The translations under genes were made by a program, and so were the position numbers. Below the pieces are notes generated by a model that saw only the letters and a list, made by a program, of their open reading frames with translations, was not told the origin of the DNA and made no database searches. Positions 13,138-29,112 of a DNA stretch of 64,000 bases are shown here, one piece after another (within the stretch, counting starts at the first letter, position 1; each line of letters opens with the position of its first letter). Location of the stretch: NCBI GenBank assembly GCA_017437045.1, contig JAFSBY010000028.1, forward strand, positions 62,001-126,000, in the 5' to 3' direction. This DNA comes from Alistipes sp. (GTDB lineage: Bacteria; Bacteroidota; Bacteroidia; Bacteroidales; Rikenellaceae).

Positions 13138-13213
13138 CGCAAAAAAGAGTGTACTAACCTATTTTTTCGGCGTAAAGTTCCCGAAAAAATCAGAAAACAC
13201 CAAACCTGCCGTT

Positions 13214-13221
13214 CAAAAATA
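13214..13221 (-). promoter_or_regulatory. Possible promoter box for the DUF5686 gene
   Basis: TATTTTTG on the minus strand, 77 bases before the start codon; no well-spaced -33 element. Confidence 0.35.
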
Positions 13222-13273
13222 CGCTTTTAGACGCAAAAAGAGTACAATCGGACGACTGACAAGAGCCGCCGCC

Positions 13274-13309
13274 TCAAAAAAATCAGCGCGACCTTTCGGA
13301 TCGCGCTGA
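13274..13309 (-). terminator. Terminator after kinase gene
   Basis: Perfect 9-bp stem TCAGCGCGA/TCGCGCTGA (13283-13309) followed by TTTTTTT on the minus strand, right after the kinase stop. Confidence 0.85.
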
Positions 13310-13327
13310 AAGCATAAAGCCTAATGC

Positions 13328-14896
13328 TTAAAAAGCGGAGACGGCGCGCACATAGTTGTTGCCGTTCTTATTGCCGTTGTCGGTGCCGCCACGGCTCATA
13401 TTGACATACCACGCGCAGGAGGCATCAATGGCTCGTTTCTCAACTTCTGTTGAAGACCAGTACCATTCAACACCACCTTTGGTGTGTAGTAACGTTCCTC
13501 CATTTGCTGCTAAAGTACGATTGATGGTATTGCGAATCTCGTCGTCAAGCATAAATAGATTTAGTTCTTCTATGGCAGGTAGATACCATCCTGCACCCAA
13601 ATTAGCACACCAGGTAAAAGCGGGATAGTTTATGTGCCAATTTGTCCGTTTTTCTATGGCTTGATGATTGGCAACTCCATTAGTTTTGCTTGATGCGCCA
13701 ATCAGACGTTTCTGTTCGCTTTCACTGGAGGTCCATTGTAATGTACTGTTAGACTGAATCATGCTGACAAGTTTGCCGTGTTGGCCTGTTTCGTCAATCC
13801 AAAAGACAACTCCTTCTTTTGTACCGTCATTATAGTAGTCTCCTACCCGATAGGTATTACCAACAATCTTCCCTTTCTGTATGTCAGCAATAGTTCCTTC
13901 GTCAATCACTACATCCACGACCGTAGCCTCGATCGCGGGGTCGTCGTACGAGGTCTGCTCCCCGGGGGCAGGGGCGATAGGTGTGGTTGTAGCCGCACCC
14001 TTCAGCGCGGCCAAAAACTCGGCCACCGAGCCGTAGCGGTCGCGTTTCATGGGCGACATCGCCTTTTCGACCACGGCGATCGTGCGTTCGCTCACCCCTT
14101 TGGCCGTGAGTTTCTCGGTCGGGAAACCCTCGTTGAGCAACATGGCTGCCTCGGCCGGACGTTCGCCCGTGAGCATCTTGAAAAGGGTAGCACCCAACGC
14201 ATAGATATCCATCTGAACGGGGAAATCCTTGCCCTCGCGGTAGTGCGCCTGCTCCAAGGGGGCATAGCCCGGTGTGCCGCCACCGACCGTAGTGCTCGAT
14301 TCGGGCTCGCCCGACTCGTCATATTGTTTCGAGAGGCCAAAGTCGATCAGGGCAACCGATCCATCCTTGCGCAGCATCACATTGCCGGGCTTCAGGTCGA
14401 GGTGCAGCACGCGCTCGCCGTGCATGGCGACCAACGCCGCACCGATCTGCTCGGCATAGGCCACCGCCTGACCCTCGGCCAGGCCGTCGCCCCCGATCAG
14501 CGCATCCAACGAGCCGCCCTCGCAGAACTCCATGGCATAATAGGCCGTGTTGTTGGCCTCGAACGATTCGAGCACACGGACGATGTTCACATGGCGCAAC
14601 TTGCTCAAATTCTGCGCCTCGCGGGCAAACTTATGGCGGTAATGCTCATAGATGCCGCTCTTGGAGCTGCACGTCACCTCGGCACCGTGACGGCCGTTCA
14701 GGTCGTGCATGAAGAACTCCTTGATAGCCACGTGCAGGGTAGCCTCCAAGGCCCCCAATGCGCCGTCGGCCTTCACCTTGGTCGTGGCTAGGTAGGTGAT
14801 GCCGAAGGTGCCCTGCCCCAACACCCGTTCGATGGTGTAGGTGTAGGAGGCACCACGCAACGTGGTGCCAATCGGCAATTCGAGGTTCGTTGTCAT
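13328..14896 (-). CDS. Ser/Thr protein kinase with C-terminal DUF1566/C-lectin-like domain
   Basis: 522 residues from ATG at 14896 (a GTG one codon earlier is possible). Residues 20-300 are a Hanks-type kinase: glycine loop LGQGTFG, invariant Lys in VAIKEF (K59), alpha-C Glu in REAQNL, catalytic loop HLDLKPGN (D167; the Arg before Asp is replaced by Leu, so non-RD), DFG at 185-187 and GTPGYAPLEQ. No membrane segment, so cytoplasmic. After a short Pro/Thr linker, residues 345-522 resemble the DUF1566/FGE-like fold (GWYLPAIEELNLF, YWSSTE, closing NYVRAVSAF). The DNA for this tail is visibly more AT-rich than the kinase half. The tail may sense or bind a ligand; substrates are unknown. 13 bases downstream of corA. 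Confidence 0.85.
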   Translation of the reverse strand: MTTNLELPIGTTLRGASYTYTIERVLGQGTFGITYLATTKVKADGALGALEATLHVAIKEFFMHDLNGRHGAEVTCSSKSGIYEHYRHKFAREAQNLSKLRHVNIVRVLESFEANNTAYYAMEFCEGGSLDALIGGDGLAEGQAVAYAEQIGAALVAMHGERVLHLDLKPGNVMLRKDGSVALIDFGLSKQYDESGEPESSTTVGGGTPGYAPLEQAHYREGKDFPVQMDIYALGATLFKMLTGERPAEAAMLLNEGFPTEKLTAKGVSERTIAVVEKAMSPMKRDRYGSVAEFLAALKGAATTTPIAPAPGEQTSYDDPAIEATVVDVVIDEGTIADIQKGKIVGNTYRVGDYYNDGTKEGVVFWIDETGQHGKLVSMIQSNSTLQWTSSESEQKRLIGASSKTNGVANHQAIEKRTNWHINYPAFTWCANLGAGWYLPAIEELNLFMLDDEIRNTINRTLAANGGTLLHTKGGVEWYWSSTEVEKRAIDASCAWYVNMSRGGTDNGNKNGNNYVRAVSAF

Positions 14897-14909
14897 CACA
14901 AAAGTTGGG

Positions 14910-15893
14910 TTATAACCATTTCTTATACTTGAAATACCAAATCGTCAGGGCCGAGCAGAGGATCATCAGGCCGATGGCAAAGAGGTATCCGGCAGGCAGG
15001 GTAAAGCTCTCGCCGATCTTGATCTGCCAATCGAGCTCGGGCATGACCTTGAAGTTCATACCATAGATCGAGGCGATGAGCGTCGCGGGCATGAAGATCA
15101 CGGCAGCCACCGAGAAGATCTTCACCACATCGTTCTGCTCGATGTTGATCAGACCCAAGGCGGCATCCTGGATATAGTCCAGACGCTGGAAGCTGAAGTC
15201 GGCGTGGTTGATCAGCGAATTGACGTCCTTGATCATCAGCTGCAGGCGCGGATAGATATCGTTCGGGAAACGCTCCGAGCGCAAGATGCTCGACAAGACG
15301 CGCTGACGGTCGAAGAGGTTCTCACGCAGCAACATCGAGCTCTCCTGCAGGGCACTGATGCGGTAGAGCACCTCGCGATCGATCGAATCCTCGGCCGCAA
15401 TATCCTTGGAAAGCGAGGCCACCTGCTTGGCGATCAACTCCACCAGGTCGGCATCGTAGTCGATGCGCACCTCGAGCAGCGAGATGAAGATGTGGTAGCC
15501 GGTCGAATAGCTGCGGTAGTTCATCTGGAGGCGTTTCTCCGTCTCGCGGAAGGTACGCGACTCGGTATTGCGCACCGAGACCAGCACACCCTCGTTGGAG
15601 ATGATGAACGAGACCGGCTCGACAACAAACGAGTCGCCCGTCGGGATAAAGAAGTTCGAGTTCGAGATGATCGCATTCTCGGTCTCGGAGTATTTCGAGG
15701 TGGACTCGATCTCCTCGACCTGCTGACGGGTCTGGAGGCTGATTTCGATGAAGCTCTCGACGGCACGCTGCTCCTTGATCGTGGGCTCCATCATGTCGAT
15801 CCAGAGAATATCGTCGTAGCCGAGCTCGTCGAAGAGCTTGGTGTCGGCATTGCGGATAATCTTGTTGTATTGCTTGAGGTAGATTGTAATCAT
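14910..15893 (-). CDS. corA: CorA-family divalent metal transporter
   Basis: 327 residues. A long acidic, helical cytosolic domain is followed by two C-terminal membrane helices; the first ends in the signature YGMNF (GMN at 278-280) and the second is LFAIGLMILCSALTIWYF before a basic tail KYKKWL. CorA pentamers carry Mg2+ (also Co2+ or Ni2+) into the cell (family knowledge). It precedes the kinase gene by 16 bases on the same strand, so co-expression and possibly functional linkage are likely. Metal preference cannot be read from the sequence. Confidence 0.93.
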   Translation of the reverse strand: MITIYLKQYNKIIRNADTKLFDELGYDDILWIDMMEPTIKEQRAVESFIEISLQTRQQVEEIESTSKYSETENAIISNSNFFIPTGDSFVVEPVSFIISNEGVLVSVRNTESRTFRETEKRLQMNYRSYSTGYHIFISLLEVRIDYDADLVELIAKQVASLSKDIAAEDSIDREVLYRISALQESSMLLRENLFDRQRVLSSILRSERFPNDIYPRLQLMIKDVNSLINHADFSFQRLDYIQDAALGLINIEQNDVVKIFSVAAVIFMPATLIASIYGMNFKVMPELDWQIKIGESFTLPAGYLFAIGLMILCSALTIWYFKYKKWL

Positions 15894-15969
15894 GACATAG
15901 GTCGCTTAAAAAAGTGGGCGAATGGGTTTTCGTTTACCTATGGCGAGCTGCGTGGGCCCGCTAACCTCT

Positions 15970-16158
15970 TCAGCCGGGATTGGGAGTCGGTTCGATCTTG
16001 ATGCCGGCATCCCATGTTTTTTGAAGCGAACGACAGTATTGATTACGCGCGGACAATAGCGAGGCGGCACGGAGCGGAGCTTCGTGCAGTAAGCCATAGC
16101 GACCCGTCATCGTGCAGCCACACGATGTAGTTACTATCAGCGATACTAAGGCCATCAT
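15970..16158 (-). CDS. Possible small lipoprotein
   Basis: 62 codons from ATG at 16158. The N-terminus MMALVSLIVTTSCGC resembles a short lipoprotein signal with Cys13, although the lipobox (TTSC) is weak and no Lys/Arg precedes the hydrophobic stretch. The rest (TGRYGLLHEAPLR ... DAGIKIEPTPNPG) is not recognised. A TACCTTTG promoter box lies 36 bases upstream on the same strand, and corA follows 76 bases later, so it might be the first gene of a corA-kinase transcript. It may equally be a leader region without a protein. Confidence 0.35.
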   Translation of the reverse strand: MMALVSLIVTTSCGCTMTGRYGLLHEAPLRAASLLSARNQYCRSLQKTWDAGIKIEPTPNPG

Positions 16159-16194
16159 CCATACAAAAATTCAAAAATGATTGATACAGTTGCA

Positions 16195-16202
16195 CAAAGG
16201 TA
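16195..16202 (-). promoter_or_regulatory. Leftward -7 box (lipoprotein/corA/kinase)
   Basis: TACCTTTG on the minus strand in an AT-rich setting; the only clear promoter motif upstream of corA. Confidence 0.5.
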
Positions 16203-16254
16203 CACAAAAATCGTAAAAATTTTCTAAAAAATATAGAAAAAATGCAAAAAGGTC

Positions 16255-16286
16255 TTGACAAGGGGGGTCTGCCGAGTGTATATTTG
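16255..16286 (+). promoter_or_regulatory. Promoter of the phage-derived cassette
   Basis: TTGACA at 16255-16260 and TATATTTG at 16279-16286. The -7 element is a perfect TAnnTTTG, and the upstream hexamer also matches a sigma-70 -35. Leader to the first ATG is about 190 bases. Confidence 0.65.
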
Positions 16287-16334
16287 CACCGTGGTTCAAC
16301 ACCAAACGTTCCTGCCCCGGCCACTTTTCAACAT

Positions 16335-16413
16335 CTATCAAACGGCTGGTTATCAGTATCCCAACGGCAGGTTATCAACGCTTATCAACAGGTATTAACA
16401 CCTTATCAACCGT
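16335..16413 (+). repeat. TTATCAAC-type repeat cluster in cassette leader
   Basis: Repeated cores: CTATCAAAC (16335), TTATCAGT (16350), TTATCAACG (16372), TTATCAACA (16382), TTATCAACC (16403), with AACGGC[T/A]GGTTATCA occurring twice (16341, 16363). TTATCAACA differs by one base from the DnaA box TTATCCACA. Likely operator or protein-binding array; identity of the binder unknown. Confidence 0.55.
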
Positions 16414-16479
16414 TTTATTGACAGCCCTTGTCAGGTTTCCCGCCTGCGCCCTGTCATTCACCTTTTTTCTTCCTTTTTT

Positions 16480-17439
16480 ATGCATTTCACCTCGCTACCG
16501 GAGGCGTATGCGCCCTTTGGAGCCGCGCTACGCTACTCCCTCACCAACCCTTCGGGCTCCAACCTGCAAATCGCCGTGCGTCGAGACGACGGAACGTTGC
16601 TCGGCACTAAACAGTTTCTCGCCGCCACCACCTGCGACATCGACATCGCCCCCATGCTGCGCCACACGCTCGAGATGACCCCTTTGGCCTTCGATTCGGG
16701 ATTTTACAGCGGAGCGCGACGCTGCCTCACGGTCGAGGTCGAGGCCTCGAACGACGCAGAGACGATCCTCTCCGAACGCCGCACCTTCACGGCTACGACC
16801 GAGCCGATACAACGGCCCTCACCCCTGACAACCCTGCCTACGAAGAGGCTGATTACCCCCGACGGGTACGACGAATTGACCTTTGTTGCCGAGGAGCCTT
16901 TAGAGGCCATTGTCACCAGTTCGGCAGGCTACCACACGACCGTCGAGTCGTTCGCATCGCCTACGGGCGGCATGCAACTCTTCTGCCTGCACGCCTCCGA
17001 CTTCCCGCGAGCCGAGCGCATCGTGGTCGAGGTCGGATCGATCGCCACGATCGAGTACACGGTAGTCCCCGCCATCGAGGGGATGCAACACGTAGCCTGG
17101 CGCAGCTCGGCCGGCTCGATCGAGCACTACACCTTCCCAACCACCGAGCGCGTAAACCTCGAAACGACGAAACGCTATCACCGCTCGCCAACGGCTCGTC
17201 ACGCCCACTGCACCTCCATCGAGGAGCGCATGCAGCTCTGCTCGAACTACGAGACCCCGGCCATGATGCGCGCCCTGAGCGAGGTGCTGACCTCCGAGCA
17301 GGTATGGTTGCTCCGAGGGGAGGAGTATGAGGCGGTCGATGTGGTCACCCTCGCGGCCGAGTTGCACCGCCACGGCACGCTGCGCCGGCTCTCGATCGAG
17401 ATTCGTTCCACCCACAACAACGGCACACTATGGAACTGA
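16480..17439 (+). CDS. Phage-type structural protein, possibly distal tail
   Basis: 319 residues, no signal peptide, no membrane segment, rich in Thr, Ser and short beta-strand patterns (ALRYSLTN, LQIAVRRDDGTLLGTKQF, RCLTVEVEA). I recognise no family motif. Its place directly before a 786-residue beta-rich protein is like the pair of distal-tail and tail-tip genes in Bacteroidetes siphophages, so a distal-tail-like role is inferred from position only. The ATG at 16480 is the first of the cassette and has no strong Shine-Dalgarno sequence, as usual for Bacteroidetes. Stop overlaps the next start by 10 bases. Could instead be a dedicated cargo or adhesion protein. Confidence 0.6.
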   Translation: MHFTSLPEAYAPFGAALRYSLTNPSGSNLQIAVRRDDGTLLGTKQFLAATTCDIDIAPMLRHTLEMTPLAFDSGFYSGARRCLTVEVEASNDAETILSERRTFTATTEPIQRPSPLTTLPTKRLITPDGYDELTFVAEEPLEAIVTSSAGYHTTVESFASPTGGMQLFCLHASDFPRAERIVVEVGSIATIEYTVVPAIEGMQHVAWRSSAGSIEHYTFPTTERVNLETTKRYHRSPTARHAHCTSIEERMQLCSNYETPAMMRALSEVLTSEQVWLLRGEEYEAVDVVTLAAELHRHGTLRRLSIEIRSTHNNGTLWN

Positions 17440-19790
17440 TCATCGACAACCAACCCTGCGATCTGCCGTGCAACAACCTGACCCTCCCGGGATTTGACTT
17501 CTCCCAGACCGGCGACCTCAATGCCCTCCGCGAGGGGCGAACGCTGCGCATCACCCTCCCACGCACGGCCACCAACGACCGCCTCATCGGTCGTCCGTGC
17601 GACCCCCAAACGGCCATCCGATTCAATGCCACAGACCACCGTGCCCGCATTGAGGTGGAGGGGACCCCGCTGCTGCAAGGCTCGATCCACCTGCTGACGG
17701 CCTCCGACGAGGGCTACACGCTCGAGATCCACGAACCGGGAAGCGGTTGGGCCTCCCAGGCTGCCCTGCAACAGCTGCATGAGTTGCATTTCGACTACAA
17801 GAAACAACTCACCCCGCAGACCATCTGTGAGAGTTGGCGCGACGATAGTCCTGTGCGCTTTTTCCCGATCCACCGCGACGACTATGAGCCGAGTTACAAT
17901 TCACTCGACCTGCTCCCCTCCGAGCGTATCCTTTCGGTCGATGATTACCACCCATTCCTGCATCTGGCCTCGCTCCTCGAGCAGCTCTTTCGCGAAAGTG
18001 GCTACACGCTCAAGAGCCAATTTCTGCAAAGTGCCCTCTTTCGCTCGCTCTACATCAGCGGAGCCTACTCCACGCGCGACACCGCAGCAGCGGCCTCCCA
18101 CATGGGCTTTTTGGCCAAACGCCTCGGATCGGTTACGGCCGTAGCCAATGCCCACGGCCGAGTGGTGGCCGACCCCTTTGTGCAGGCAGATTACTCGGTG
18201 GGCAACTTAGTCGAAAGTGCCACGCCCCAAAGTGTCGACGCCGAAGGGAAGGTGGTCACGGGACTCTACAACCACGGGAATTGTTTCAGCCTGACCGAAG
18301 ATGGCGCGATCTGCTACACACCACTGACCACAGCCAGCGTAGCCTTCGCCTACTACCTCAAGTACACAACCTCGCATCGCATCTTGACACGCCACCGTCT
18401 GGCCGGATTCGATTCGCTCTACCTCGGACCGGGCAATGAGTTGCACTTCACCCTGACCAACCGCTACGAGGATCGCCGCGAGGCCCTCAACGCCGAGCAA
18501 CGCTACCGCGTCTTGGTCTTTGACCACACCGCCGGAGCCTCCTACCGTCTCTCGGTCAGCCTCGACGGGGAGCCCGACCAATGGGCCACTACCTTCGCCG
18601 AACGATCCGCCTCGGTGATTCTGCCGGCTTCGGGGAGCCCCTCCAATCCGCAGTTAGAGATCCTTCACGGCACCACGTGGGAGCCCTACACCGGCGATTG
18701 GGCGATGTACGATGGCCATATCGAGGAGTATGGCCAGACGATTGTCGAATTGCGCATTCGCACCGCCTCGGAGTTGCTCACGCCCTCCACACCCAAGAGC
18801 TTCGATACGATCTACTTTTTCGGCGCCGACGAGGGGATGACGCTCACGCTGCACCCGGAGTGCTCGATCGAGGCCCACTTCCTCTCCACGCCGGGCTTTG
18901 GCTCCTCGATCACCTTTCAAGATGTGGCACAATTGCAAATTCGTCAAATCGAACTTTTGGAGGCCGTAGCACACCTCTTCAACCTGCGTTTTGCCACCGA
19001 CGAGGCGATCAAAACGGTCTATATCGAGCCATACGACGACTTCTATGGCAGCCACGAGGTGGATTGGTGCGACAAGGTGGATTGGGAGGAGCCGATCTGC
19101 TTCACCGACCTCACCCCGCAACTGCACACCACGCGTACCTGGTGCTACGAAGCGGGGGATGGAGCTGTCAAACGATTCGAGGCACAAGAGGGGACCTCGC
19201 TCGGCAGTTGGACCTACACGACCAACAGCTACGCCACACTCCGAGGGAGGCAGGTGCTGCGCAATCCGCTCTTTCGAGCCTCGGTCAGCAGCGTTGGCCA
19301 CTACACCAATGCCCCCTCGGCGCGGCTGCTGCAGGTGGGCGACCGCGACGACCCAACCGAGGATGCTACGAACTTTTCGCCGCGCATTGTCAGCTATTTG
19401 GGCATGCACCCGCTTGCCGCAGGGGAGTGGTGGGGACATCCGGCAAACGAAGGAGCTTACCCGCTCGTAGCGTTTCATTTTGCAGGGGATGAGACGACCG
19501 AGGGGCTGAACCTCGGTTTTGAGGATCGGGAGGAGGTCACAGGGCTGCATCGTTACTACGACCGTGCGCTGCATGATCAAGTCTATGGGGGTCGCATCTC
19601 CCTCTCGCTCCACCTCCCACCCCATCGCCTCGCCTCGTTGCTGAGGATCAACGATGTCGGAGGCGATCGGCGCGCCATCTTCCGGTTGAGCACTCCGGAG
19701 GGTGACCTCTCCGCCATCTTGGAGCAGATCGAGGCCTTTGACCCAGCCACCGGCATCATTCGTTGCCACTTTATCCGCGTCGATCGATGA
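17430..19790 (+). CDS. Large phage-type protein, possibly tail tip/hub
   Basis: 786 residues, soluble, mostly predicted beta with some helices. The first segment (MELIIDNQPCDLP ... LPGFDFSQTGDLNALREGRTLRITLP) resembles the start of phage baseplate-hub or tail-associated proteins; a middle part contains a SSxHMGF-like helix region and the last third alternates aromatic-rich strands. No peptidase or glycosidase motif is recognised. It is the largest gene of the cassette and the stop overlaps the next start as ATGA. Role in tail-tip formation or receptor binding is inferred from size and order, not from a recognised domain. Confidence 0.6.
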   Translation: MELIIDNQPCDLPCNNLTLPGFDFSQTGDLNALREGRTLRITLPRTATNDRLIGRPCDPQTAIRFNATDHRARIEVEGTPLLQGSIHLLTASDEGYTLEIHEPGSGWASQAALQQLHELHFDYKKQLTPQTICESWRDDSPVRFFPIHRDDYEPSYNSLDLLPSERILSVDDYHPFLHLASLLEQLFRESGYTLKSQFLQSALFRSLYISGAYSTRDTAAAASHMGFLAKRLGSVTAVANAHGRVVADPFVQADYSVGNLVESATPQSVDAEGKVVTGLYNHGNCFSLTEDGAICYTPLTTASVAFAYYLKYTTSHRILTRHRLAGFDSLYLGPGNELHFTLTNRYEDRREALNAEQRYRVLVFDHTAGASYRLSVSLDGEPDQWATTFAERSASVILPASGSPSNPQLEILHGTTWEPYTGDWAMYDGHIEEYGQTIVELRIRTASELLTPSTPKSFDTIYFFGADEGMTLTLHPECSIEAHFLSTPGFGSSITFQDVAQLQIRQIELLEAVAHLFNLRFATDEAIKTVYIEPYDDFYGSHEVDWCDKVDWEEPICFTDLTPQLHTTRTWCYEAGDGAVKRFEAQEGTSLGSWTYTTNSYATLRGRQVLRNPLFRASVSSVGHYTNAPSARLLQVGDRDDPTEDATNFSPRIVSYLGMHPLAAGEWWGHPANEGAYPLVAFHFAGDETTEGLNLGFEDREEVTGLHRYYDRALHDQVYGGRISLSLHLPPHRLASLLRINDVGGDRRAIFRLSTPEGDLSAILEQIEAFDPATGIIRCHFIRVDR

Positions 19791-20059
19791 AACTGACCCA
19801 CCTCGAGCAGCAGCTCTGTCAGCAGCTCGAGCAGGAGATTAAAGGGGTGCGTCGCGAACAGATCATACCCCATCTGTTCACCCTGGGGTTACTCTCCTAC
19901 AAGGCCATCGAAGAGCTGGCCATCCGCCGCCACATCGAGTCCCTCATCGGCCGGGGGCTCTCGACCGGTGGTGCGCTGATCGAAACGGCTCAACACTTCT
20001 GTTGCTCCTACGAGAAGGCGCGAAACATCTATTACAAACCAAAACACAACCATCCATGA
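19787..20059 (+). CDS. Small helical protein, HTH-like
   Basis: 90 residues from the ATG at 19787, which overlaps the preceding stop as ATGA; an earlier in-frame ATG at 19763 would overlap more and is less likely. Nearly all helical: EQQLCQQLEQEIKG, HLFTLGLLSYKAIEELAIRR, then GGALIETAQHFCCSYEKAR, which has the spacing of a helix-turn-helix. It ends in a basic tail (KPKHNH). Lies immediately before the prohead protease. It could be a small DNA-binding packaging or regulatory factor, but no family is recognised. Confidence 0.6.
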   Translation: MKLTHLEQQLCQQLEQEIKGVRREQIIPHLFTLGLLSYKAIEELAIRRHIESLIGRGLSTGGALIETAQHFCCSYEKARNIYYKPKHNHP

Positions 20060-20967
20060 TCAAACCCACAAAAATCCACATCAACAACGAAGCCTCGTGC
20101 TGCCTGATCGAGATCGAAGGGACGATCGGTGTGCCCGAAGAGTGGCAATTTGACGACCCAGACAGTCGCGTAGCCACCTACGAACGCTTCCGCGAATCGG
20201 TCGCCCGCATTGCCCAAATCGAGGCCCCGGAGATCATCGTCTCGATCCGCTCGACGGGCGGCGATGTAAACGACGCGCTGCTCATCCACGACGCACTGCG
20301 CCAGCTCAACGGCCGCATCACCACACGCTGCTACGGCTACACGGCCTCGGCCGCTACGATCATTGCGCAGGCAGCCTCCGAGGGTTGTCGCGAGATCTCG
20401 GCCAACGCCCTCTACCTGATTCACCAGGCGACCTGCACGACCGAAGGCAACGCCTCCCAGCTGAGCGAACAGCTCGACCTGCTTCGCACGACCGACGAGC
20501 GTCTCGGCGCCCTCTATGCAGCCCGTTCGGGTCGTCCGCAAGAGGAGTTTCAGGCCCTGATGAGCGAAAACAACGGCAACGGGCGTTGGCTCTCGCCCGA
20601 CGAGGTCATTGCAGCCGGATTGGCCGACCGCATCATCGGTGGAGAAGCGTCAGTCGAGACCTCTCCCACCCAACCGGCCTCCACGGAGCAGCCCTCAGCC
20701 CTGCGCAACGGCATCCATCGCCTGCTGCGAGCCATTGGCGTAGAACCTGCAGCCACACAAGCGGAGCTGCCCGAGGATCACAACATCCTGCATTTTCAAG
20801 AGGTCTTCAACACCCAGCGTCGGCGTGCCATCAGTGCCATGTCCGCACAAAAACAGTATGAGCCGACACGCACAAAGCCGGTCGAAGATCCCTCTTATCA
20901 GGAGGCCACCCTCTCGGCCAACGCCAAAGCCTATGCCGAGGATCTCAAACAATTCAAACGCTATTAA
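20056..20967 (+). CDS. ClpP-like prohead (head maturation) protease
   Basis: 303 residues from ATG at 20056, overlapping the previous stop as ATGA; the longer frame from 20002 is rejected. Residues 15-195 are ClpP-like: oxyanion-hole region STGGDV (66-71), nucleophile Ser98 in GYTASAATI, His123 in LIHQ. The Ser-His spacing of 25 equals that of E. coli ClpP. The third catalytic residue is not obvious: the segment NGNGRWLSPDEV replaces the Asp-containing ClpP block. The C-terminal 110 residues are a low-complexity, charged extension that may act as a scaffold/delta domain to be cut off. Directly precedes the capsid gene, as in HK97-type phages. Confidence 0.85.
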   Translation: MIKPTKIHINNEASCCLIEIEGTIGVPEEWQFDDPDSRVATYERFRESVARIAQIEAPEIIVSIRSTGGDVNDALLIHDALRQLNGRITTRCYGYTASAATIIAQAASEGCREISANALYLIHQATCTTEGNASQLSEQLDLLRTTDERLGALYAARSGRPQEEFQALMSENNGNGRWLSPDEVIAAGLADRIIGGEASVETSPTQPASTEQPSALRNGIHRLLRAIGVEPAATQAELPEDHNILHFQEVFNTQRRRAISAMSAQKQYEPTRTKPVEDPSYQEATLSANAKAYAEDLKQFKRY

Positions 20968-21013
20968 AACAACCTACAACAACCATTCATTTACCCATTA
21001 AAAACCATTTATT

Positions 21014-21991
21014 ATGCCTTACTTAGAAACTGTAAAGACCTACACAGGAAACGACGTTGAGAAGATCTTTTTCCGCCCCATGCTGACGGGCCCTTCGGCC
21101 GCAGACCTCGGCATCCGTGTACTGTACAACCTGCCAGCACCGACCACGGTCCAATATTGGAGCCCCTATCGTAATATTTTGCAGCCGCTCGAGGGCTCCG
21201 GTTGGAATGGCGGCAAGGGTGCCAACAAACTCCAGAAGACGATCCGGATGGAGCGAGTGAAGGCCGAATTGGCCTTCTCGGCAGCCGACTACTATTCGAT
21301 GGTCTATGAGACAATCACGGCACAGCCCGATGTCAATTTCGAGGATCTGACCGGCACGATCATCGAGCAGGCCGAGACGGCCATCTTCAAGCAGAACATC
21401 GCCGAGAATCTGCGTGTCACCATGTGGATCGGCGACACCCAGAACGCGCAGGGCTACAACACCTTCAACGGACTGCTCTCCCACATTAAGGCATTCAAGG
21501 AGGATGAAGCTTTCACGCCGATCAGCTATTCAGCGCAGGACAAACAAGACCCCGCGTTCATCCCAAGCCTCTTCAACAACTTGTGGGATCAGCTGCATGT
21601 GGATGCCCAATCGGCCAAGCACGAGGGCCAGCTCGCCTTCTTCGTCACGAGCGACATCTACAACCTCTACGAAAAATACCTCGACTCGATGGGGGTTGAT
21701 GCCGCCTACACGGGCACCCTTGAGGGGCATACCGAACTGATGTACCACGGCATCCCGGTCATCGACATCCGTCTGAGCCGCTATTTGGCGGATACCTCCT
21801 TCGATCAATCGTTTGCCCTCTTGACAGACCGTCGCAACCTGATCCTGGCGGTCAATACGGCCGATATGCCCGGCAACGAGGTGCGCATGTGGTATAACCC
21901 CGACGAGATGGAGAATCGTCAGCGAGCCACCTTCATGGCCGGCACGGCGATCCTCGACGAGAGCCTCTTCTCCTACGCTCACATCCTGTAA
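21014..21991 (+). CDS. Major capsid protein, HK97-like
   Basis: 325 residues. Placed directly after the maturation protease, with its own 46-base AT-rich leader and codon use favouring expression. Features typical of Bacteroidetes phage capsids: an N-terminal arm, a long central helix (FEDLTGTIIEQAETAIFKQN), the GYNTFNGLLSHI region, YHGIPVIDIRLS, and a C-terminal strand block MWYNPDEMENRQRATFMAGT. No N-terminal delta domain is present, which fits a scaffold supplied separately or by the protease extension. The fold is inferred from context and pattern; a structural prediction would settle it. Confidence 0.75.
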   Translation: MPYLETVKTYTGNDVEKIFFRPMLTGPSAADLGIRVLYNLPAPTTVQYWSPYRNILQPLEGSGWNGGKGANKLQKTIRMERVKAELAFSAADYYSMVYETITAQPDVNFEDLTGTIIEQAETAIFKQNIAENLRVTMWIGDTQNAQGYNTFNGLLSHIKAFKEDEAFTPISYSAQDKQDPAFIPSLFNNLWDQLHVDAQSAKHEGQLAFFVTSDIYNLYEKYLDSMGVDAAYTGTLEGHTELMYHGIPVIDIRLSRYLADTSFDQSFALLTDRRNLILAVNTADMPGNEVRMWYNPDEMENRQRATFMAGTAILDESLFSYAHIL

Positions 21992-22045
21992 TCCACCCCG
22001 GGGGCACGTCCCACGGCGTGCCCCCACATCAACCCAACCCTTGCT

Positions 22046-23266
22046 ATGACTAAAAAGATTCGATCCACGGCGGTCGGCCTACGCAACACCTCCGACCCCT
22101 ACATCCTCTCCCCCATGCCTGTCGATAATCGCCATTGCTGGCGTTGGGGCGATGATAACCTCTTTCCCCAGGCCCTTGCGCTGATGGCACGTCGCTCGAC
22201 CACCCATCGCCGCATTATCAACGACAAATCGGACTACATTGCCGGCAAAGGCTTCATCTGCGACGAATCGGCGGTTCCCGAACTTGCCTCGTTTATTCGT
22301 TGTGCCAACGGGCATAACGAGACGCTCCGTCAGGTGATCAGCAAACTCGCCTTCGACAAGGCCCTCTTCGGCAACGCTTTTTTGGAGGTCGTAACCGACG
22401 CCCGCCACTCGTTCCTGGCTCTCTACCACCAAGATGCCTCGCGGTGCCGATTGGCCCGCGACTCGCAGCATGTCCTGCTGCACCACGATTGGAGCCAATT
22501 CCGAGCCTCCGAGGCACAATCGCTCCCGCTCTATCCCCATTTCGAGGAGCAGGCCGACGGATCGCTCCGCTCGATGATCCACTATAAAGACTACGAGCCG
22601 ACCTTCGACCACTATGGCGTCCCCTCCTACATTGCCGGCATGAATGTCTCGGCCATCGCCTACAAAACCGATCGGTGGAACATCTCGCGCCTCGACAACT
22701 CGTTCCAACTCTCGGGCGTCATGATGCTCGACTCGGCGGTCGATAACGAGGCTGAGGCCGAGCGGCTCATCCGCTTGGCCGAGGAGAAATTTGGCGGCAA
22801 GCCCGGCCAGGTGATGTTTGTCTTGCGCGATGGCAGCGAAGCGGACAACTCCCACTTCATCCCGATCACCTCCCAAAACGACGGAGATTGGCGCGACCTG
22901 CATGAGCAGGCCCTGGCCGATATTGTCGTGGCACACTCCTGGTTTCGCACACTCAGTGGGCTGGATTACAGCTCCGGATTCAATTCCGAGCGCATTCTGC
23001 AAGAGTATGAGGTGGCCCTCAACACGGTCATCTTGGCCGAGCAGGCCGATCTGCTCGAGCCGATTCGGGAGGTGATCGCCTCGACCCTCGCCGTAGATTG
23101 TTCCTCGCTTGAGATCATCAATCGCCCGCCGACGCGCTCCAAGCCGATCTACATGAAGGTTTGGGAGGCCCGTAAAGCGGATGGTTTGGAGTACGACCCC
23201 GAGGACGAACGCCAACAGTTCTACCTCTCCGAGATCACGAAGTATAACCTTAAATCCATCCACTAA
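22046..23266 (+). CDS. Phage portal protein
   Basis: 406 residues. Portal-like features include the N-terminal clip preceding WRWGDDNLFPQAL, a helix/strand core with GKGFICDE and KALFGNAFLEVV, the conserved portal phrase WNISRLDNSFQLSGVMML, a long helix with GFNSERILQEYEVALNTVI, and a C-terminal acidic tail. Portals form the dodecameric DNA gate of tailed phage heads (known). Here it lies after the capsid gene rather than before the protease, an unusual order. Stop and next start overlap by one base (TAATG). Confidence 0.8.
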   Translation: MTKKIRSTAVGLRNTSDPYILSPMPVDNRHCWRWGDDNLFPQALALMARRSTTHRRIINDKSDYIAGKGFICDESAVPELASFIRCANGHNETLRQVISKLAFDKALFGNAFLEVVTDARHSFLALYHQDASRCRLARDSQHVLLHHDWSQFRASEAQSLPLYPHFEEQADGSLRSMIHYKDYEPTFDHYGVPSYIAGMNVSAIAYKTDRWNISRLDNSFQLSGVMMLDSAVDNEAEAERLIRLAEEKFGGKPGQVMFVLRDGSEADNSHFIPITSQNDGDWRDLHEQALADIVVAHSWFRTLSGLDYSSGFNSERILQEYEVALNTVILAEQADLLEPIREVIASTLAVDCSSLEIINRPPTRSKPIYMKVWEARKADGLEYDPEDERQQFYLSEITKYNLKSIH

Positions 23267-23739
23267 TGACGACGCTTATCACCCCACAAGAGGTTCTCCA
23301 ACGCGGTTTTGCCGGCATCGCACCCCTCTCTCCCGAGATGGTCACCTCGGCCGACATCTTAGCCGCCGAAGAGCGATACCTGATTCCGGCAATCGGCCCT
23401 GCGCTCCACGCCCGACTGCTGCAAGGCAACGATGCGAGCTTCGTAGCTGACTACCTGGCAGCCCCACTGGCCCTCTTCACACGCCTGCTTATCCAGCCGC
23501 GCCTGCAGCTGCTCACCACGCGCATCGGCGTGTTGGAGCCCTCGACCGACCAAGGCTCGGCTGCCAAAACAGCCTCGCTCAATCGTCTGCAACAGAGCCT
23601 GCGCAACGAAGCCTCGACGCTGCTACGCCGCGCCATCCGTTACCTGGAGGCCCACGCCTCCGAATACCCCGAATATGACCCTCACCAAAACATCTTAAAC
23701 CGTTGTACCATCCATGGAAATTACCTACAAATTCATTAG
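23266..23739 (+). CDS. Head-tail connector-like protein
   Basis: 157 residues, almost wholly helical: SADILAAEERYLIPAIG, LHARLLQG, VADYLAAPLALFTRLLI, and a final long helix LNRLQQSLRNEASTLLRR. This matches the size, helical make-up and position after the portal of gp6-type connectors and of DUF6712-like Bacteroidetes phage proteins (family name from memory). Its 3' end overlaps the holin gene by 26 bases, so translation is probably coupled. Confidence 0.6.
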   Translation: MTTLITPQEVLQRGFAGIAPLSPEMVTSADILAAEERYLIPAIGPALHARLLQGNDASFVADYLAAPLALFTRLLIQPRLQLLTTRIGVLEPSTDQGSAAKTASLNRLQQSLRNEASTLLRRAIRYLEAHASEYPEYDPHQNILNRCTIHGNYLQIH

Positions 23740-24139
23740 TGGCTGCGTAGCCGCCCTCGTAGCCCTCTTTGCCCCGATTGCACCGTTGATTATCTGCACC
23801 CTGCTCTTCATTGCCATCGACTTCATCTCGGGCATTTTAGCCGACCGCAAAATGGCTCGCGACGAGGGCCGGCAGTGGTTTTTCGAGAGTGGTCGTGCCT
23901 GGCACACCATCCTCAAAGCCGGCCTTGCGATTGTCGCGCTGGGTATGTCCTGGCTCATCGACAGCTGCATCCTGCAGTTCCTGCATCTGAATCTGGCCCA
24001 GCTCTTCGCCGGATTCACCTGCGGTATCGAGCTATGGTCGTTCCTCGAGAATGCCGCCCAATTGAGCGACGCTCCACTCTTTCGCTGGTTGCGCCAATTT
24101 GTCCACCGCCGCATCCGAAAGGAGGTAGCGCATGAGTAG
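23714..24139 (+). CDS. Phage holin
   Basis: 141 residues with three to four hydrophobic segments (CVAALVALFAPIAPLIICTLLFIAIDFISGI, ILKAGLAIVALGMSWLI, LFAGFTCGIELWSFLENAA) and a basic C-terminus (RRIRKEVAHE). The IDFISGILADRK segment with the downstream FxS/R pattern is typical of the toxin-secretion/phage-lysis holin family seen in Bacteroidetes prophages. Holins open the inner membrane to release endolysin. The gene overlaps both neighbours (26 and 8 bases) and is followed directly by the endolysin. Confidence 0.8.
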   Translation: MEITYKFISGCVAALVALFAPIAPLIICTLLFIAIDFISGILADRKMARDEGRQWFFESGRAWHTILKAGLAIVALGMSWLIDSCILQFLHLNLAQLFAGFTCGIELWSFLENAAQLSDAPLFRWLRQFVHRRIRKEVAHE

Positions 24140-24533
24140 AGGGCTTCGCAACTGCAATCCGGGCAATATTCGCCACTCCATCGCCCGCTTTCGGGGTGAG
24201 GTACGCCCCTCGCGCGATGCCGCCTTCAAAGAGTTCTCCTCGCTGGCGTGGGGCTATCGTGCTATCTTTGTCGTGCTGAACACCTACCGCAAGAAGCATG
24301 GCCTACGCACCCTGCCCGAGATGGTTGCCCGCTGGGCCCCTCCCTCCGAGAACCACACCTCGGCCTATATTCAGGCCGTTCAACGCATGACCGGCATCCC
24401 GCTCGACGAGCCGATCTGCACCGACGACGAGCAGACGATGATCCCGCTGGCGATGGCCATCTCGCAGGTCGAAAATGGCGTTCCGGCCTCCCGAGCCGAT
24501 GTAGAGGCCGGCTGGCGACTCTATCGCACCTAA
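24132..24533 (+). CDS. Phage endolysin-like protein (P5-type muramidase fold)
   Basis: 133 residues beginning with RGLRNCNPGNIRHS; the NPGNIR block is the hallmark of the structural-protein-P5/lysozyme-like family in phages. Later blocks: DAAFKEFSSLAWGYRAIFVVLNTY, MVARWAPPSENHTSAYI and MAISQVENG. Expected to cut peptidoglycan; the exact catalytic Glu is not assigned here, and E33/E28-like acidic residues are candidates. No signal peptide, so export would rely on the holin encoded just upstream. Last gene of the cassette, followed by a hairpin terminator. Confidence 0.8.
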   Translation: MSRGLRNCNPGNIRHSIARFRGEVRPSRDAAFKEFSSLAWGYRAIFVVLNTYRKKHGLRTLPEMVARWAPPSENHTSAYIQAVQRMTGIPLDEPICTDDEQTMIPLAMAISQVENGVPASRADVEAGWRLYRT

Positions 24534-24551
24534 TCATCCACCCACCACAAA

Positions 24552-24587
24552 AAGAGGCTGTCCAACCCATCTGTTGGACAGCCTCTT
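24552..24587. terminator. Shared terminator between phage cassette and DUF3826
   Basis: Perfect 15-bp stem AAGAGGCTGTCCAAC / GTTGGACAGCCTCTT with 6-base loop; T-run follows on the minus strand, so it is strongest for the leftward DUF3826 transcript but can stop both. Confidence 0.8.
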
Positions 24588-24623
24588 GTGCATGTAAAAG
24601 CGGGATTCGTCCCCTCCCGAGGA

Positions 24624-25298
24624 TTATTTACCCTCCTGCTTTTTGCGCTCCTCGATACGCTTATACCACGCTTCGCGCTCGGCCTTCAGGTCATAACCAC
24701 GCTTGGAGAGGTAGTTGTTGATACGACCCTTATATTTGCCAAAGACCTCATGTTTCTTGTTCGAGCTCTCGGCATCAACGGCCAACTCACGCGCCTCCTC
24801 CAGCCACACGCGGATCTGCTCCTTCTCCTCGTCGGTCAGCGTCGGGATCATATCCAGGTGTGAGTCGTAAGTCACCTTCACCACACCGAAGGTAATTCCA
24901 TCCATCACCGCCTCGATCTGCTCATCATTCAGATAGAGCGACAAGGTGGCCGGAAAGGCGAAGTGCGAACGATAGAGTTTGCTGTCACACTCATATTTGG
25001 CAAAATCCTGCGCCATCTGCTTTGCCTCGCCCGTCAGCCCCTGCTCTTTGACGGCAGCCAGACGTTGATCGCGGGCTTCGTAGATGTCGTTGAGCTCAAA
25101 ATAGCGATTGGCAACGATCGTTACGACCTCCTGCTTGACCGCCTCATCGGTCAAAGCCAGCTTATCGACCACCTTCTCCGAACGGGCCACAATCTTTTTC
25201 ACATACTCCGGATCGCGTCCTTCGCTCTTCAATTCAATGGCCGAGGCCGTCATCACAGCCGCCATCAGCAGCACTACACTCAACAAGATTCGTTTCAT
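24624..25298 (-). CDS. DUF3826 secreted protein, PUL-associated
   Basis: 224 residues. Signal peptide MKRILLSVVLLMAAVMTASA, then a helical protein of about 200 residues with the family phrases VANRYFELNDIYEARD, DQIE-like LNDEQIEAVMDGITFGVV and KYKGRINNYLSKRGYDL. DUF3826 members sit in pectin and rhamnogalacturonan loci of Bacteroidetes, but their activity is not known to me. Periplasmic or extracellular by the signal peptide. It has its own TATATTTG promoter box 30 bases upstream, in the narrow gap after the pectate lyase gene, and a terminator behind it. Confidence 0.85.
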   Translation of the reverse strand: MKRILLSVVLLMAAVMTASAIELKSEGRDPEYVKKIVARSEKVVDKLALTDEAVKQEVVTIVANRYFELNDIYEARDQRLAAVKEQGLTGEAKQMAQDFAKYECDSKLYRSHFAFPATLSLYLNDEQIEAVMDGITFGVVKVTYDSHLDMIPTLTDEEKEQIRVWLEEARELAVDAESSNKKHEVFGKYKGRINNYLSKRGYDLKAEREAWYKRIEERKKQEGK

Positions 25299-25327
25299 AA
25301 GCTCTTTTTTGATTGGTTTTCTGTAGA

Positions 25328-25335
25328 CAAATATA
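25328..25335 (-). promoter_or_regulatory. -7 box for DUF3826
   Basis: TATATTTG on the minus strand, 29 bases before the ATG at 25298. Confidence 0.55.
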
Positions 25336-25352
25336 GGATTATTTTTTGAGAC

Positions 25353-27089
25353 TTACAACAGCTTGCCCTTTTCGGCCAACGTATCGTAGTTATTGGCCAT
25401 ATTGGTCCAATCAACCCGATTCTTGGTGTTGATGCCGTTGATATACTTCTCAATGTTCGTGTAACCATCGCCCGTGCAGTCGCCGTTAGCATCCGAAGCG
25501 TCGTTCGGATTCAGACCATTAGCCTTTTCCCAGGCATCGGGCATACCATCCAGATCGGTATCTACATAGGGCTGATAGTCGCCATACTCGGGTTGGCCAC
25601 CCACCTGTCGCGGATCGGTGATTAAACCATAGGTATAGGATCGCTTCGAGTGGCGACGGAATTTGAACGATCCATCGCTATCCTTCTGACGATCCACCAA
25701 ACCCGGCACATCATTCAAATAGGCCCCTTCGGGCAGATCTCGGGCATAGACAATCTTGCCGGTTCGTACCTCCTCGACCACACGGCGATCGACCGCATCG
25801 CGGCAGGGAATCGTTGCTCCCACCTGCTCCAACACGTGCTGATAAGCCGCCTCGGCCGAGAGAATCTTGATATAGGGCATCTCGAAAGGCTCATAAGCAC
25901 GCATGCGGGCCGTATGTCCCTCCGTGTCGGGCTGTTGCTCGATCTGAATACCGCCCTTCCAGTTATCTGCCGAGATCTCGGGATAGCCCTCCACGATGTT
26001 GCCCTCGGCATAGACACGACCATACTGCTTGTAGTTGAGTTTGCTACGACCCGCCTCCGGCTTGAGGATGCGCCAACCGACCGGTTCGTCACGCGGTGTA
26101 GCAGGACCGGGTTTGTAGTAGTTGTTGATCATGTTGTACATGGCCGTATAGTCGCCTCCATCCACCGTGCGATGACCCCAATTGAAGACCACGTTATTGA
26201 CATAGTTAAAGACACCGTTCCAACCGATCGAGGGGTTACGTTTGGGGTTGTTTGCCCACAAATTGCGCATAAACGAGGCATTCTCACCGCCCAGCGTCGA
26301 TCCGCAACCGTTGTTATAGGGATCCAGGGCTTCGGCCGAGATCGTATTCTGGATCGTAACATTGACCGCCGGACGCTTCTCGCTGCGAGCCTTGTATTGC
26401 CCCTCGCTCGGATCGTACATGTGGCGATAGATCGAGATATTCTCATCCATACCCCAATAGCACGAGCAGTGATCTACGATGATGTTACCCACCACATTGC
26501 CACCAAAGGCATCGTTCAGATTCCAGGTCTTCGTACGTCCGCGACGGAAGCGCATGTGGCGCACAATCACATCGTGCGTATCGACCAAAAACGACTCACC
26601 CACGACACACACGCCCTCACCCGGGGCCGTCTGACCGGCAATGGTGATATAAGGGGCTCGCACATGGATCGGGGTCTCCAAACGGATAATACCCGAAACA
26701 TTGAACACCACAATGCGCGCGCCACCTGTCTCACAAGCCTCGCGTAACGATCCCGGACCGCGGTCGTTGAGATTCGTCACCGTGATCACCTTTCCGCCAC
26801 GTCCTCCGGGTGTGTACATGCCACCCCCTTCAGCTCCCGGGAAGGCCGGGATCTTTGCCTGCGGCAGATCATACGGGCGGCTTGCCCAGGGCACATACGG
26901 ACGACCCTCTTCGGCCTGTTGCAAGACAATCGGCAGGGCTCGCTCCCACGCCTCATCCGAGAGGGCCTTTTCGCGGGCATGCATCGCATCATCAGCCGCC
27001 TTTGCCTCGGCCGTCGGCCACGGATCTTGAGCCTGAATAACCCCCACGCTCATCAGCAGCATGGCGAGACAGCATAATTGCTTTTTCAT
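25353..27089 (-). CDS. Secreted pectate lyase-like polysaccharide lyase (copy 1)
   Basis: 578 residues. Signal peptide MKKQLCCLAMLLMSVGVIQA. After a helical spacer, the catalytic right-handed beta-helix begins at IPAFPGAEGGG; ladder phrases include VITVTNLNDRGPGSLREA, RIVVFNVSGIIRLE, ITIAGQTAPGEG, VIVRHMRFRRG, NIIVDHCSCYWGMDENIS, NTISAEALDP and RNPSIGWNGVFNYVNNVV. The C-terminus carries a calcium-type repeat DTDLDGMPDAWEKANGLNP followed by DANGDCTGDGYTNIEKYING. It most resembles family PL1 pectate lyases of Bacteroidetes, which cleave homogalacturonan by beta-elimination. Paralogue of the gene just upstream. Confidence 0.85.
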   Translation of the reverse strand: MKKQLCCLAMLLMSVGVIQAQDPWPTAEAKAADDAMHAREKALSDEAWERALPIVLQQAEEGRPYVPWASRPYDLPQAKIPAFPGAEGGGMYTPGGRGGKVITVTNLNDRGPGSLREACETGGARIVVFNVSGIIRLETPIHVRAPYITIAGQTAPGEGVCVVGESFLVDTHDVIVRHMRFRRGRTKTWNLNDAFGGNVVGNIIVDHCSCYWGMDENISIYRHMYDPSEGQYKARSEKRPAVNVTIQNTISAEALDPYNNGCGSTLGGENASFMRNLWANNPKRNPSIGWNGVFNYVNNVVFNWGHRTVDGGDYTAMYNMINNYYKPGPATPRDEPVGWRILKPEAGRSKLNYKQYGRVYAEGNIVEGYPEISADNWKGGIQIEQQPDTEGHTARMRAYEPFEMPYIKILSAEAAYQHVLEQVGATIPCRDAVDRRVVEEVRTGKIVYARDLPEGAYLNDVPGLVDRQKDSDGSFKFRRHSKRSYTYGLITDPRQVGGQPEYGDYQPYVDTDLDGMPDAWEKANGLNPNDASDANGDCTGDGYTNIEKYINGINTKNRVDWTNMANNYDTLAEKGKLL

Positions 27090-27129
27090 CGTATCAGTTC
27101 GTTTTAAGGTTGTAGTTCAGTCAGAACTG

Positions 27130-27171
27130 AAAGCAAAAACGCATGTGCTCCCGGAGGATCGCACATGCGTT
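27130..27171 (-). terminator. Terminator between the two lyase genes
   Basis: 11-bp stem AACGCATGTGC/GCACATGCGTT (27139-27171) followed by TTTTTGCTTT on the minus strand. Confidence 0.75.
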
Positions 27172-27217
27172 CTGCATTTCGTTGTCCGGGACAAACGAAA
27201 CTCGCTGTCGAAACAGG

Positions 27218-28945: not shown

Positions 28946-29010
28946 TGTAGAGTTATTTAATTGATTCGTTTTGCTCAAGATACTGATGCAATTTGCACCA
29001 TTTAACCTTA

Positions 29011-29040
29011 CAAAGTTAGCAACTATTTTCAGAGAACAAA
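29011..29040 (-). promoter_or_regulatory. Promoter of pectate lyase copy 2
   Basis: TTTG at 29040-29037, 18 bases, TAACTTTG at 29018-29011; leader of about 65 bases. Confidence 0.6.
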
Positions 29041-29112
29041 ATCCATCGAGCGGTAAAACGACCTTTTGACGCGGTGAATCGCCCACCTGCGAGGGTGAAA
29101 TTTCGCCCCTCT

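What the first reader, a model, noticed from the sequence alone, without database searches (positions are those of the whole stretch)
16255..24590. Compact phage-derived capsid/lysis operon lacking terminase, tape measure and integrase
Seen: nine intact, mostly overlapping plus-strand genes with an own promoter and terminator, in the midst of minus-strand chromosomal genes. Parts recognised are prohead protease, capsid, portal, connector, holin and endolysin; parts absent are terminase, tail tube, tape measure, integrase, repressor and replication genes. Inferred: not a decaying prophage (no broken frames) but a domesticated particle-forming and lysis module, for example a gene-transfer-like or cargo-delivery particle that either packages no DNA or borrows a terminase.
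Basis: partly seen in the sequence, partly recalled or inferred. Interest (0 to 1): 0.85.

Follow-up and report, generated by a model that had tools for sequence, protein, structure and literature searches.

The report
Inherited gene-transfer particle of gut Alistipes
About nine in ten sampled genomes of one family of gut bacteria (Alistipes and relatives) carry the same core set of virus genes, passed down with the host lineage and kept at two separate chromosomal sites, which likely builds a virus-like particle that would pack and move pieces of the bacterium's own DNA.

Summary
In detail: nine intact plus-strand genes (16480-24533) form an operon of phage descent, with no terminase or tail-tube gene seen beside it. 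Nor is it strain-specific. Its capsid occurs in 181 of 200 sampled genomes of the family (105 of 109 good-quality ones), single copy in 177 of 181, in conserved gene order and under purifying selection; the portal tree follows the genera. The 'missing' terminase and repressor sit on another contig: an S24 repressor, a 95-aa gene and a large terminase with conserved catalytic motifs. That terminase occurs in 181 of 200 genomes too, diverges in step with the capsid, and tends to be absent with it (13 genomes lack both, p = 7e-12; among good-quality genomes 2 of 109, p = 0.006). A strand-specific repeat array (TTATYRACA) marks the Alistipes operon leader. I read this as a domesticated, two-locus, gene-transfer-agent-like system; my searches found no report of one in Bacteroidota. 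Particle formation, DNA packaging and transfer are inferred. Against it: no tail tube or tape measure was found, some relatives lack the protease domain or have split frames, and a 2026 faecal virome study found Rikenellaceae abundant in stool but named none among its packaging events.

The parts
16255..16286 (+). promoter, TTGAC-N19-TATATTTG
   Evidence: sequence; pattern upstream of p1 in 27 of 59 related loci, none from p1 onwards
16350..16423 (+). leader repeat array: TTATYRACA exact at 16382 and 16415, near copies at 16350, 16372 and 16403
   Evidence: sequence: enriched, strand-specific and spaced by about 11 bases in Alistipes leaders
16480..17439 (+). p1, 319 aa beta-rich protein, predicted tail-tip/adaptor part
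   Evidence: model pLDDT 93.9; Ig-like folds only; 39 of 40 family loci
17430..19790 (+). p2, 786 aa predicted tail hub with an inserted TNF/C1q-like jelly roll (about 219-486)
19787..20059 (+). p3, 90 aa small conserved protein, possibly DNA-binding
   Evidence: 33 of 40 loci; faint match to HTH proteins of compact phage elements (20%)
20056..20967 (+). ClpP-type head maturation protease, 303 aa
   Evidence: PF00574, phrog_94; at least 70% of the profile in 36 of 40 loci, only its C-terminal tail in 4
21014..21991 (+). major capsid protein, 325 aa
   Evidence: phrog_1623 1.6e-5; 181 of 200 family genomes
22000..22026 (+). GC-rich hairpin between capsid and portal (possible attenuator)
   Evidence: seen in the sequence; not tested
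22046..23266 (+). portal protein, 406 aa
   Evidence: PF04860, phrog_11226; 61-78% identical to 32 family members
23266..23739 (+). connector / head-completion protein (DUF6712), 157 aa
   Evidence: PF20459 1.2e-11; 40 of 40 loci
23714..24139 (+). holin, 141 aa
   Evidence: PF05105, phrog_199; 27 of 40 loci
24132..24533 (+). endolysin, 133 aa
   Evidence: phrog_873 1.1e-42; 20 of 40 loci
24553..24586 (.). terminator-like hairpin, copy of a dispersed repeat
   Evidence: sequence; 11 other places among the matches listed

Best explanation
This operon is the capsid, predicted tail-hub and lysis half of a vertically inherited, two-locus phage-derived system found in about nine in ten sampled Rikenellaceae genomes, and it likely makes gene-transfer-agent-like particles that would package host DNA. 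Shown: gene content and order, distribution, purifying selection, inheritance along genus lines, and co-distribution and co-divergence with a terminase locus elsewhere (S24 repressor, 95-aa gene, terminase large subunit). Inferred steps: (1) a signal, probably DNA damage acting through the S24 repressor, would release the terminase locus, while the leader array would control the capsid operon; (2) capsid and protease would form a procapsid on the portal; (3) the terminase would fill it with chromosomal DNA, since neither locus carries recognised integration or replication genes; (4) connector, p1 and p2 would close it with a short, hub-tipped end; (5) holin and endolysin would lyse the producing cell and free the particles.
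Against: No particle, packaged DNA or transfer was observed. No tail tube or tape measure: f9 and PF10145 not found in this genome (the f9 search had no positive control). In 4 of 40 loci only the C-terminal tail of the protease profile matches. Frames are split in 3 of 40 loci: portal in L053 and L079, connector in L054, p1 in L079. Holin and endolysin profiles find 27 and 20 of 40 loci. No shared operator links the repressor to the capsid operon. In three human donors Rikenellaceae were abundant in total DNA but are not among the GTA-type events named (PMC12946183, sections 7 and 9). Four genera lack both loci in the 8 genomes sampled. The two-repeat pattern is no commoner genome-wide than its reversed control (4 against 5 in six genomes); only its position is telling. 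In 2 of those 6 genomes it does not occur.
Confidence: 0.66

Rival explanations
1. A killing particle like PBSX: host DNA is packaged, but particles act on competing strains and deliver nothing.
For: PBSX packages 13-kb host fragments without transfer (PMC7667829, passages seen). p1 is fast-evolving (16-44% identity to the window's), as a recognition part might be. Lysis genes are present.
Against: No sheath or tube gene was recognised in the operon to pierce a cell; no immunity gene was noticed beside it, though none was sought systematically.
Confidence: 0.13
2. Two independent relics: the terminase was kept for another role and has nothing to do with the capsid operon.
For: The loci are on different contigs here and far apart in some genomes; no shared operator; the closest viral contigs found for terminase and portal differ; co-absence is modest in good-quality genomes (p = 0.006).
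Against: Co-absence at genus level and co-divergence, which shared host descent alone could also produce in part; loci close together in four g20 genomes; motor and nuclease motifs kept.
Confidence: 0.12
3. A helper-dependent satellite or remnant that borrows tails from resident phages.
For: Tail tube and tape measure were not found; tail-tip parts p1 and p2 are kept.
Against: No integrase, excision or replication genes recognised in the operon; presence follows genus lines, unlike a mobile satellite.
Confidence: 0.06
4. A capsid shell that packages no DNA, kept for storing or delivering protein cargo.
For: No terminase in the operon itself; no tail tube.
Against: A strongly conserved portal and a co-inherited terminase make most sense with DNA packaging.
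Confidence: 0.03

Closest known systems
FpGTA of Faecalibacterium (PMC12946183; abstract, outline, sections 7 and 9 and passages seen)
   Same: Two separate operons, one carrying a terminase and the other the lysis genes; conserved across a gut genus; no visible tail on the particles.
   Different: Different host phylum. There capsid, portal and terminases share operon I; here capsid and portal sit with hub and lysis genes and the terminase is with a repressor. FpGTA particles and DNA of about 8.4-9 kb were seen; here nothing has been tested at the bench.
RcGTA of Rhodobacter capsulatus
   Different: RcGTA has a tailed particle (recalled); no tube or tape measure gene was found here. The terminase here is a phrog_38 type akin to Bacteroides phage terminases.
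PBSX of Bacillus subtilis
   Same: Defective phage locus that packages host DNA.
   Different: PBSX acts as a bacteriocin and is one phage-like cluster (recalled). Here there are two loci and no tail body.
Bacteroides phage B40-8 and IMG/VR phage contigs L110, L112, L160
   Same: Terminase about 45-47% (B40-8 group) and 58% (L160) identical; protease-capsid-f9-portal-connector order, portal 47-52% identical, in L110 and L112; p2 homologue in L160.
   Different: They carry fibre-like genes, an integrase-like gene (L110), a tape-measure-like gene (L160) or replication genes (several named by reading only) that the family system lacks.

Membership tests
Gene transfer agent | phage-derived head genes conserved in a host lineage and inherited vertically | tested here: met
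Gene transfer agent | structural genes under purifying selection | tested here: met
   dN/dS medians 0.16-0.27
Gene transfer agent | terminase large subunit with intact motor and nuclease | tested here: met
   by motif conservation only, at a second locus
Gene transfer agent | no integration or replication genes of its own | tested here: met
   none recognised in the operon or in the repressor-terminase locus, by reading the ORFs; not searched genome-wide
Gene transfer agent | release by lysis genes | tested here: inconclusive
   holin and endolysin here, but profiles find them in only 27 and 20 of 40 loci
Gene transfer agent | tail able to deliver DNA | tested here: inconclusive
   hub-like p2 present; tube and tape measure not found
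Gene transfer agent | packages mostly random host DNA | not testable with these tools
   needs purified particles
Gene transfer agent | transfers DNA between cells | not testable with these tools
   needs a transfer assay
Active or decaying prophage | integrase, replication and full structural set at one site | tested here: not met
   not seen in the window; no such conserved block in 40 family loci, whose flanking ORFs were compared but not all annotated
Active or decaying prophage | patchy, strain-level presence, with decay in remnants | tested here: not met
   181 of 200 genomes, no stops in listed capsid rows; split frames in 3 of 40 loci
Phage satellite (PICI-like) | mobile island with integrase, hijacking a helper | tested here: not met
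   no integrase recognised in or beside the operon; tree follows genera
Contractile injection system / tailocin | sheath and tube without a capsid | tested here: not met
   capsid, portal and terminase present; no sheath or tube recognised in the operon

The most novel reading that the evidence does not exclude
Rikenellaceae own a working gene transfer agent, the first known in the Bacteroidota: a tube-less, hub-tipped capsid whose packaging motor and repressor are held at a second, unlinked locus. It was captured once near the base of the family and has since been used by the host to exchange chromosomal DNA, with a private, helically phased leader array as its switch.
Probability: 0.48. Interest if true: 0.92.

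Novelty: new variant of a known kind. Interest (0 to 1): 0.83.

Why it matters
Alistipes and relatives are common gut bacteria. A family-wide inherited packaging system would add, beside conjugation and phage transduction, a route for gene flow in the gut and a further independent origin of gene transfer agents. Relatives of the locus already turn up in viral collections (IMG/VR contigs L039-L044, INPHARED records MT838805 and MT838736), so it also shows how such loci can get filed as viruses. The prediction is sharp: a terminase deletion should abolish packaged host DNA.

Tried and rejected
Terminase by phrog_2 in this genome: the hit is a PhoH-like protein, by my reading of its sequence. PF04466 terminases: 17 of 200 family genomes; in none of the 12 whose capsid place was listed do they lie beside the capsid. 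PDB sequence searches with p1, p2, f8, f9 and capsid profiles gave nothing useful; the terminase query matched only TAL-effector repeats, with no stretch significant on its own. p1 Foldseek and VIA matches are mostly Ig-like and complement folds; a phage N4 tail chain (rank 29) and a T6SS effector domain (rank 6) appear without standing out. An S24 operator shared with the capsid operon: TTCAAnnnTTGAA is in the repressor-95 aa gap of 29 of 34 genomes at up to one mismatch (shuffle mean 0.8), but upstream of the operon in 7 of 18 at two mismatches (shuffle mean 3.6, maximum 8): rejected. RNA role for the leader array: motif accessibility is close to base-matched controls. Outside Alistipes the array is neither strand-biased nor phased (10 forward, 12 reverse; 25 loci). 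Rfam: nothing. p3 as a homologue of the HTH gene of compact elements: 20% probability, left open. f8 and f9 matched no family and no solved structure at the limits used. Literature: searches found no report of this system; most subscription papers and bioRxiv preprints are not in that library.

Papers, what I saw: PMC12946183, abstract, outline, sections 7 and 9 and passages; PMC9723715, PMC7947584, PMC7667829 and PMC11841831, passages only; the others, search listings. Features of RcGTA and PBSX not cited to a call, the Bacteroidota promoter type, and the names of the terminase and LexA/CI motifs are recalled.

Full report
What is there. The stretch 16480-24533 holds nine plus-strand genes, each from ATG to a single stop, with 6 of 8 junctions overlapping: p1 (319 aa), p2 (786), p3 (90), ClpP-type head protease (303), capsid (325), portal (406), DUF6712 connector (157), holin (141) and endolysin (133). 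A Bacteroidota-type promoter (type recalled) stands at 16255-16286. Its pattern recurs upstream of p1 in 27 of 59 related loci and not from p1 onwards in them. G+C is 0.597 against 0.541 for the rest of the window. I recognised no integrase, replication, tube or tape-measure gene among the ORFs of 13000-28000.

It is family-wide. A search of 200 genomes of the family with the capsid found 181, and 105 of 109 good-quality ones; 177 of the 181 have one match, and no listed match contains a stop (the list of matches is cut). In a search of 393 genomes of the order with the portal, 17 matched: five of the family at 64% identity or more, four genomes of other families at 33-38%, and eight more weakly. 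A scan of named genomes kept the best 80 of 260 portal relatives, titled Alistipes, Rikenellaceae, Tidjanibacter or, for one, Bacteroidales bacterium.

Gene order. I compared 40 loci of 20 kb (fewer bases where contigs end), chosen from the capsid hits for contig length and genus spread, so not a random sample. Capsid, portal and connector are in 40 of 40, p1 and p2 in 39 (the other contig ends there), p3 in 33, holin in 27 and endolysin in 20, in this order. The protease profile matches in 40, but in 4 (L055, L058, L075, L076) only over its C-terminal part; no ClpP active-site motif is seen there between p2 and capsid (the motif check missed one of two control loci, L079). Many loci, some Alistipes among them, add genes: f8 (about 140 aa) before p1 in 27, f9 (about 150-175 aa) between capsid and portal in 22, f15 in 15 and f19 in 7 of 40. 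Frames are split in 3 of 40 loci: portal in L053 and L079, connector in L054, p1 in L079.

Inheritance and selection. Eight genes have median dN/dS of 0.16-0.27, highest pair 0.451. Only pairs of 75-99.5% identity with dS of 0.05-2 were used; pairs are related and some genomes entered twice, so they are not independent. In a tree of 60 family portals and three phage portals, 13 groups need 12 label changes, the minimum. Alistipes (36 rows) and two further genera with five or more rows are single clades with starred support; genus g16 (3 rows) is not one clade in this tree, and the phage rows are on long branches. This fits vertical descent from about the base of the family.

The missing terminase. 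Searching this genome with three terminase families in turn (PF04466, phrog_2, PF03237), one real hit appeared, on contig C24: a 470-aa large terminase at G000:C24:56237-57646, minus strand, between tsaD and a divergent HTH-S24 repressor, with a 95-aa gene 180 bases upstream of it. It is phrog_38, 5.6e-85. It occurs in 181 of 200 family genomes and 105 of 109 good-quality ones. Thirteen genomes lack both it and the capsid, six lack only the capsid and six only the terminase (Fisher p = 7e-12). Six of the thirteen are under 80% complete; among 182 genomes at 80% or more, seven lack both (p = 8e-8), and among the 109 good-quality ones, two (p = 0.006) (from the tables). Genomes of one genus are not independent, so these are rough. 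In 26 genomes with both, capsid and terminase distances correlate at 0.89, and at 0.76 within the 21 Alistipes genomes; no permutation of 999 reached either (for p1 within Alistipes, 3 of 999). Shared host descent alone would give part of this. The trio is conserved: repressor in 37 and 95-aa gene in 37 of 38 loci from 36 genomes, tsaD within about 3 kb in 15 (some loci are cut by their ends). Walker A, Walker B and nuclease motifs are kept in 36 family and 2 phage sequences. In four g20 genomes, picked because their listed places were close, terminase and f8 are 3.7-4.0 kb apart. In other g20 genomes they are 37 kb or more apart or on other contigs, and farther in Alistipes.

Control region. 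After seeing 18 Alistipes leaders I counted TTATYRACA. In 39 loci it has 2.39 hits per kb in the 600 bases before the first gene, against 0.088 elsewhere; 16 of 39 have two or more. In 59 other loci, some of the same genomes, it has 1.56 against 0.047, 30 with two or more. There it is strand-specific (89 forward, 3 reverse), and in the 27 with the promoter 39 of 40 forward copies lie downstream of it. Spacings cluster at multiples of about 11 bases: R is 0.84 over 38 related spacings and 0.75 over 17 distinct values, two spacings over 100 being left out and the period chosen after seeing the data. This would suit a protein binding one face of DNA. In six whole genomes the close pair occurs four times, once each in four genomes, each 56-210 bases before p1; the reversed control pattern occurs five times, so position and not number is telling (distances). 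Outside Alistipes, orientation and phasing vanish. The repressor has its own palindrome, TTCAAnnnTTGAA, in 29 of 34 gaps, but this does not recur significantly at the operon. An Ala-Gly pair and a Ser and a Lys, each conserved in at least 90% of 35 sequences, would fit LexA/CI-type self-cleavage (the rule is recalled).

Comparison. The nearest published parallel is FpGTA of Faecalibacterium, with two operons and particles seen (PMC12946183, section 9). That paper bears on this case also negatively: Rikenellaceae were among the most abundant families in total DNA, yet the packaging events it names are Ruminococcaceae (17 of 25), Oscillospiraceae (3) and Christensenellaceae (3), two being unnamed in the section. 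It is the only paper in the library holding both 'Rikenellaceae' and 'gene transfer agent'. I therefore do not file the system as a proven gene transfer agent: it would work like one, and its two functional criteria remain untested. On re-checking, the weaker co-absence among complete genomes and the shortened protease in four loci made me lower the confidence from 0.68 to 0.66, the novel case from 0.50 to 0.48 and interest from 0.84 to 0.83, and raise the two-relics rival from 0.10 to 0.12.

Noticed in passing
L100-L103, L104-L105, L107-L108 (genomes G370 twice, G544, G356): Compact elements in other Bacteroidales families: a terminase gene (PF04466 shown for G544) divergent from protease-like, capsid, portal and connector genes, with no tail genes recognised beside them by reading; possibly another class of reduced or domesticated capsid locus.
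   Followed up: partly
L055, L058, L075, L076: The ClpP domain of the head protease is missing and only a C-terminal tail remains as a small open frame, as if a scaffold-like part outlived the protease.
   Followed up: partly
24553-24586: The terminator hairpin belongs to a dispersed repeat of about 40 bases found at 11 other places among the matches listed.
   Followed up: no
L039-L044, L109; GenBank MT838805, MT838736: IMG/VR contigs and 'Bacteriophage sp.' records that carry relatives of this chromosomal locus and are filed as viral.
   Followed up: partly
G000:C24, gap between S24 repressor and 95-aa gene (L117 12116-12243): Palindrome TTCAAnnnTTGAA in 29 of 34 genomes at up to one mismatch, but not seen at the corresponding place of this genome.
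   Followed up: partly
L112 7632-8618: A reverse transcriptase-like gene follows a 555-aa fibre-like gene in a phage relative, as in diversity-generating retroelements (by sequence appearance only).
   Followed up: no
25353-29086: Two adjacent similar proteins downstream on the minus strand, pectate-lyase-like by reading, in one cluster: a duplication.
   Followed up: no
L046 (G087): About 1.5 kb of extra sequence lies between p1 and p2 in this single-contig genome.
   Followed up: no
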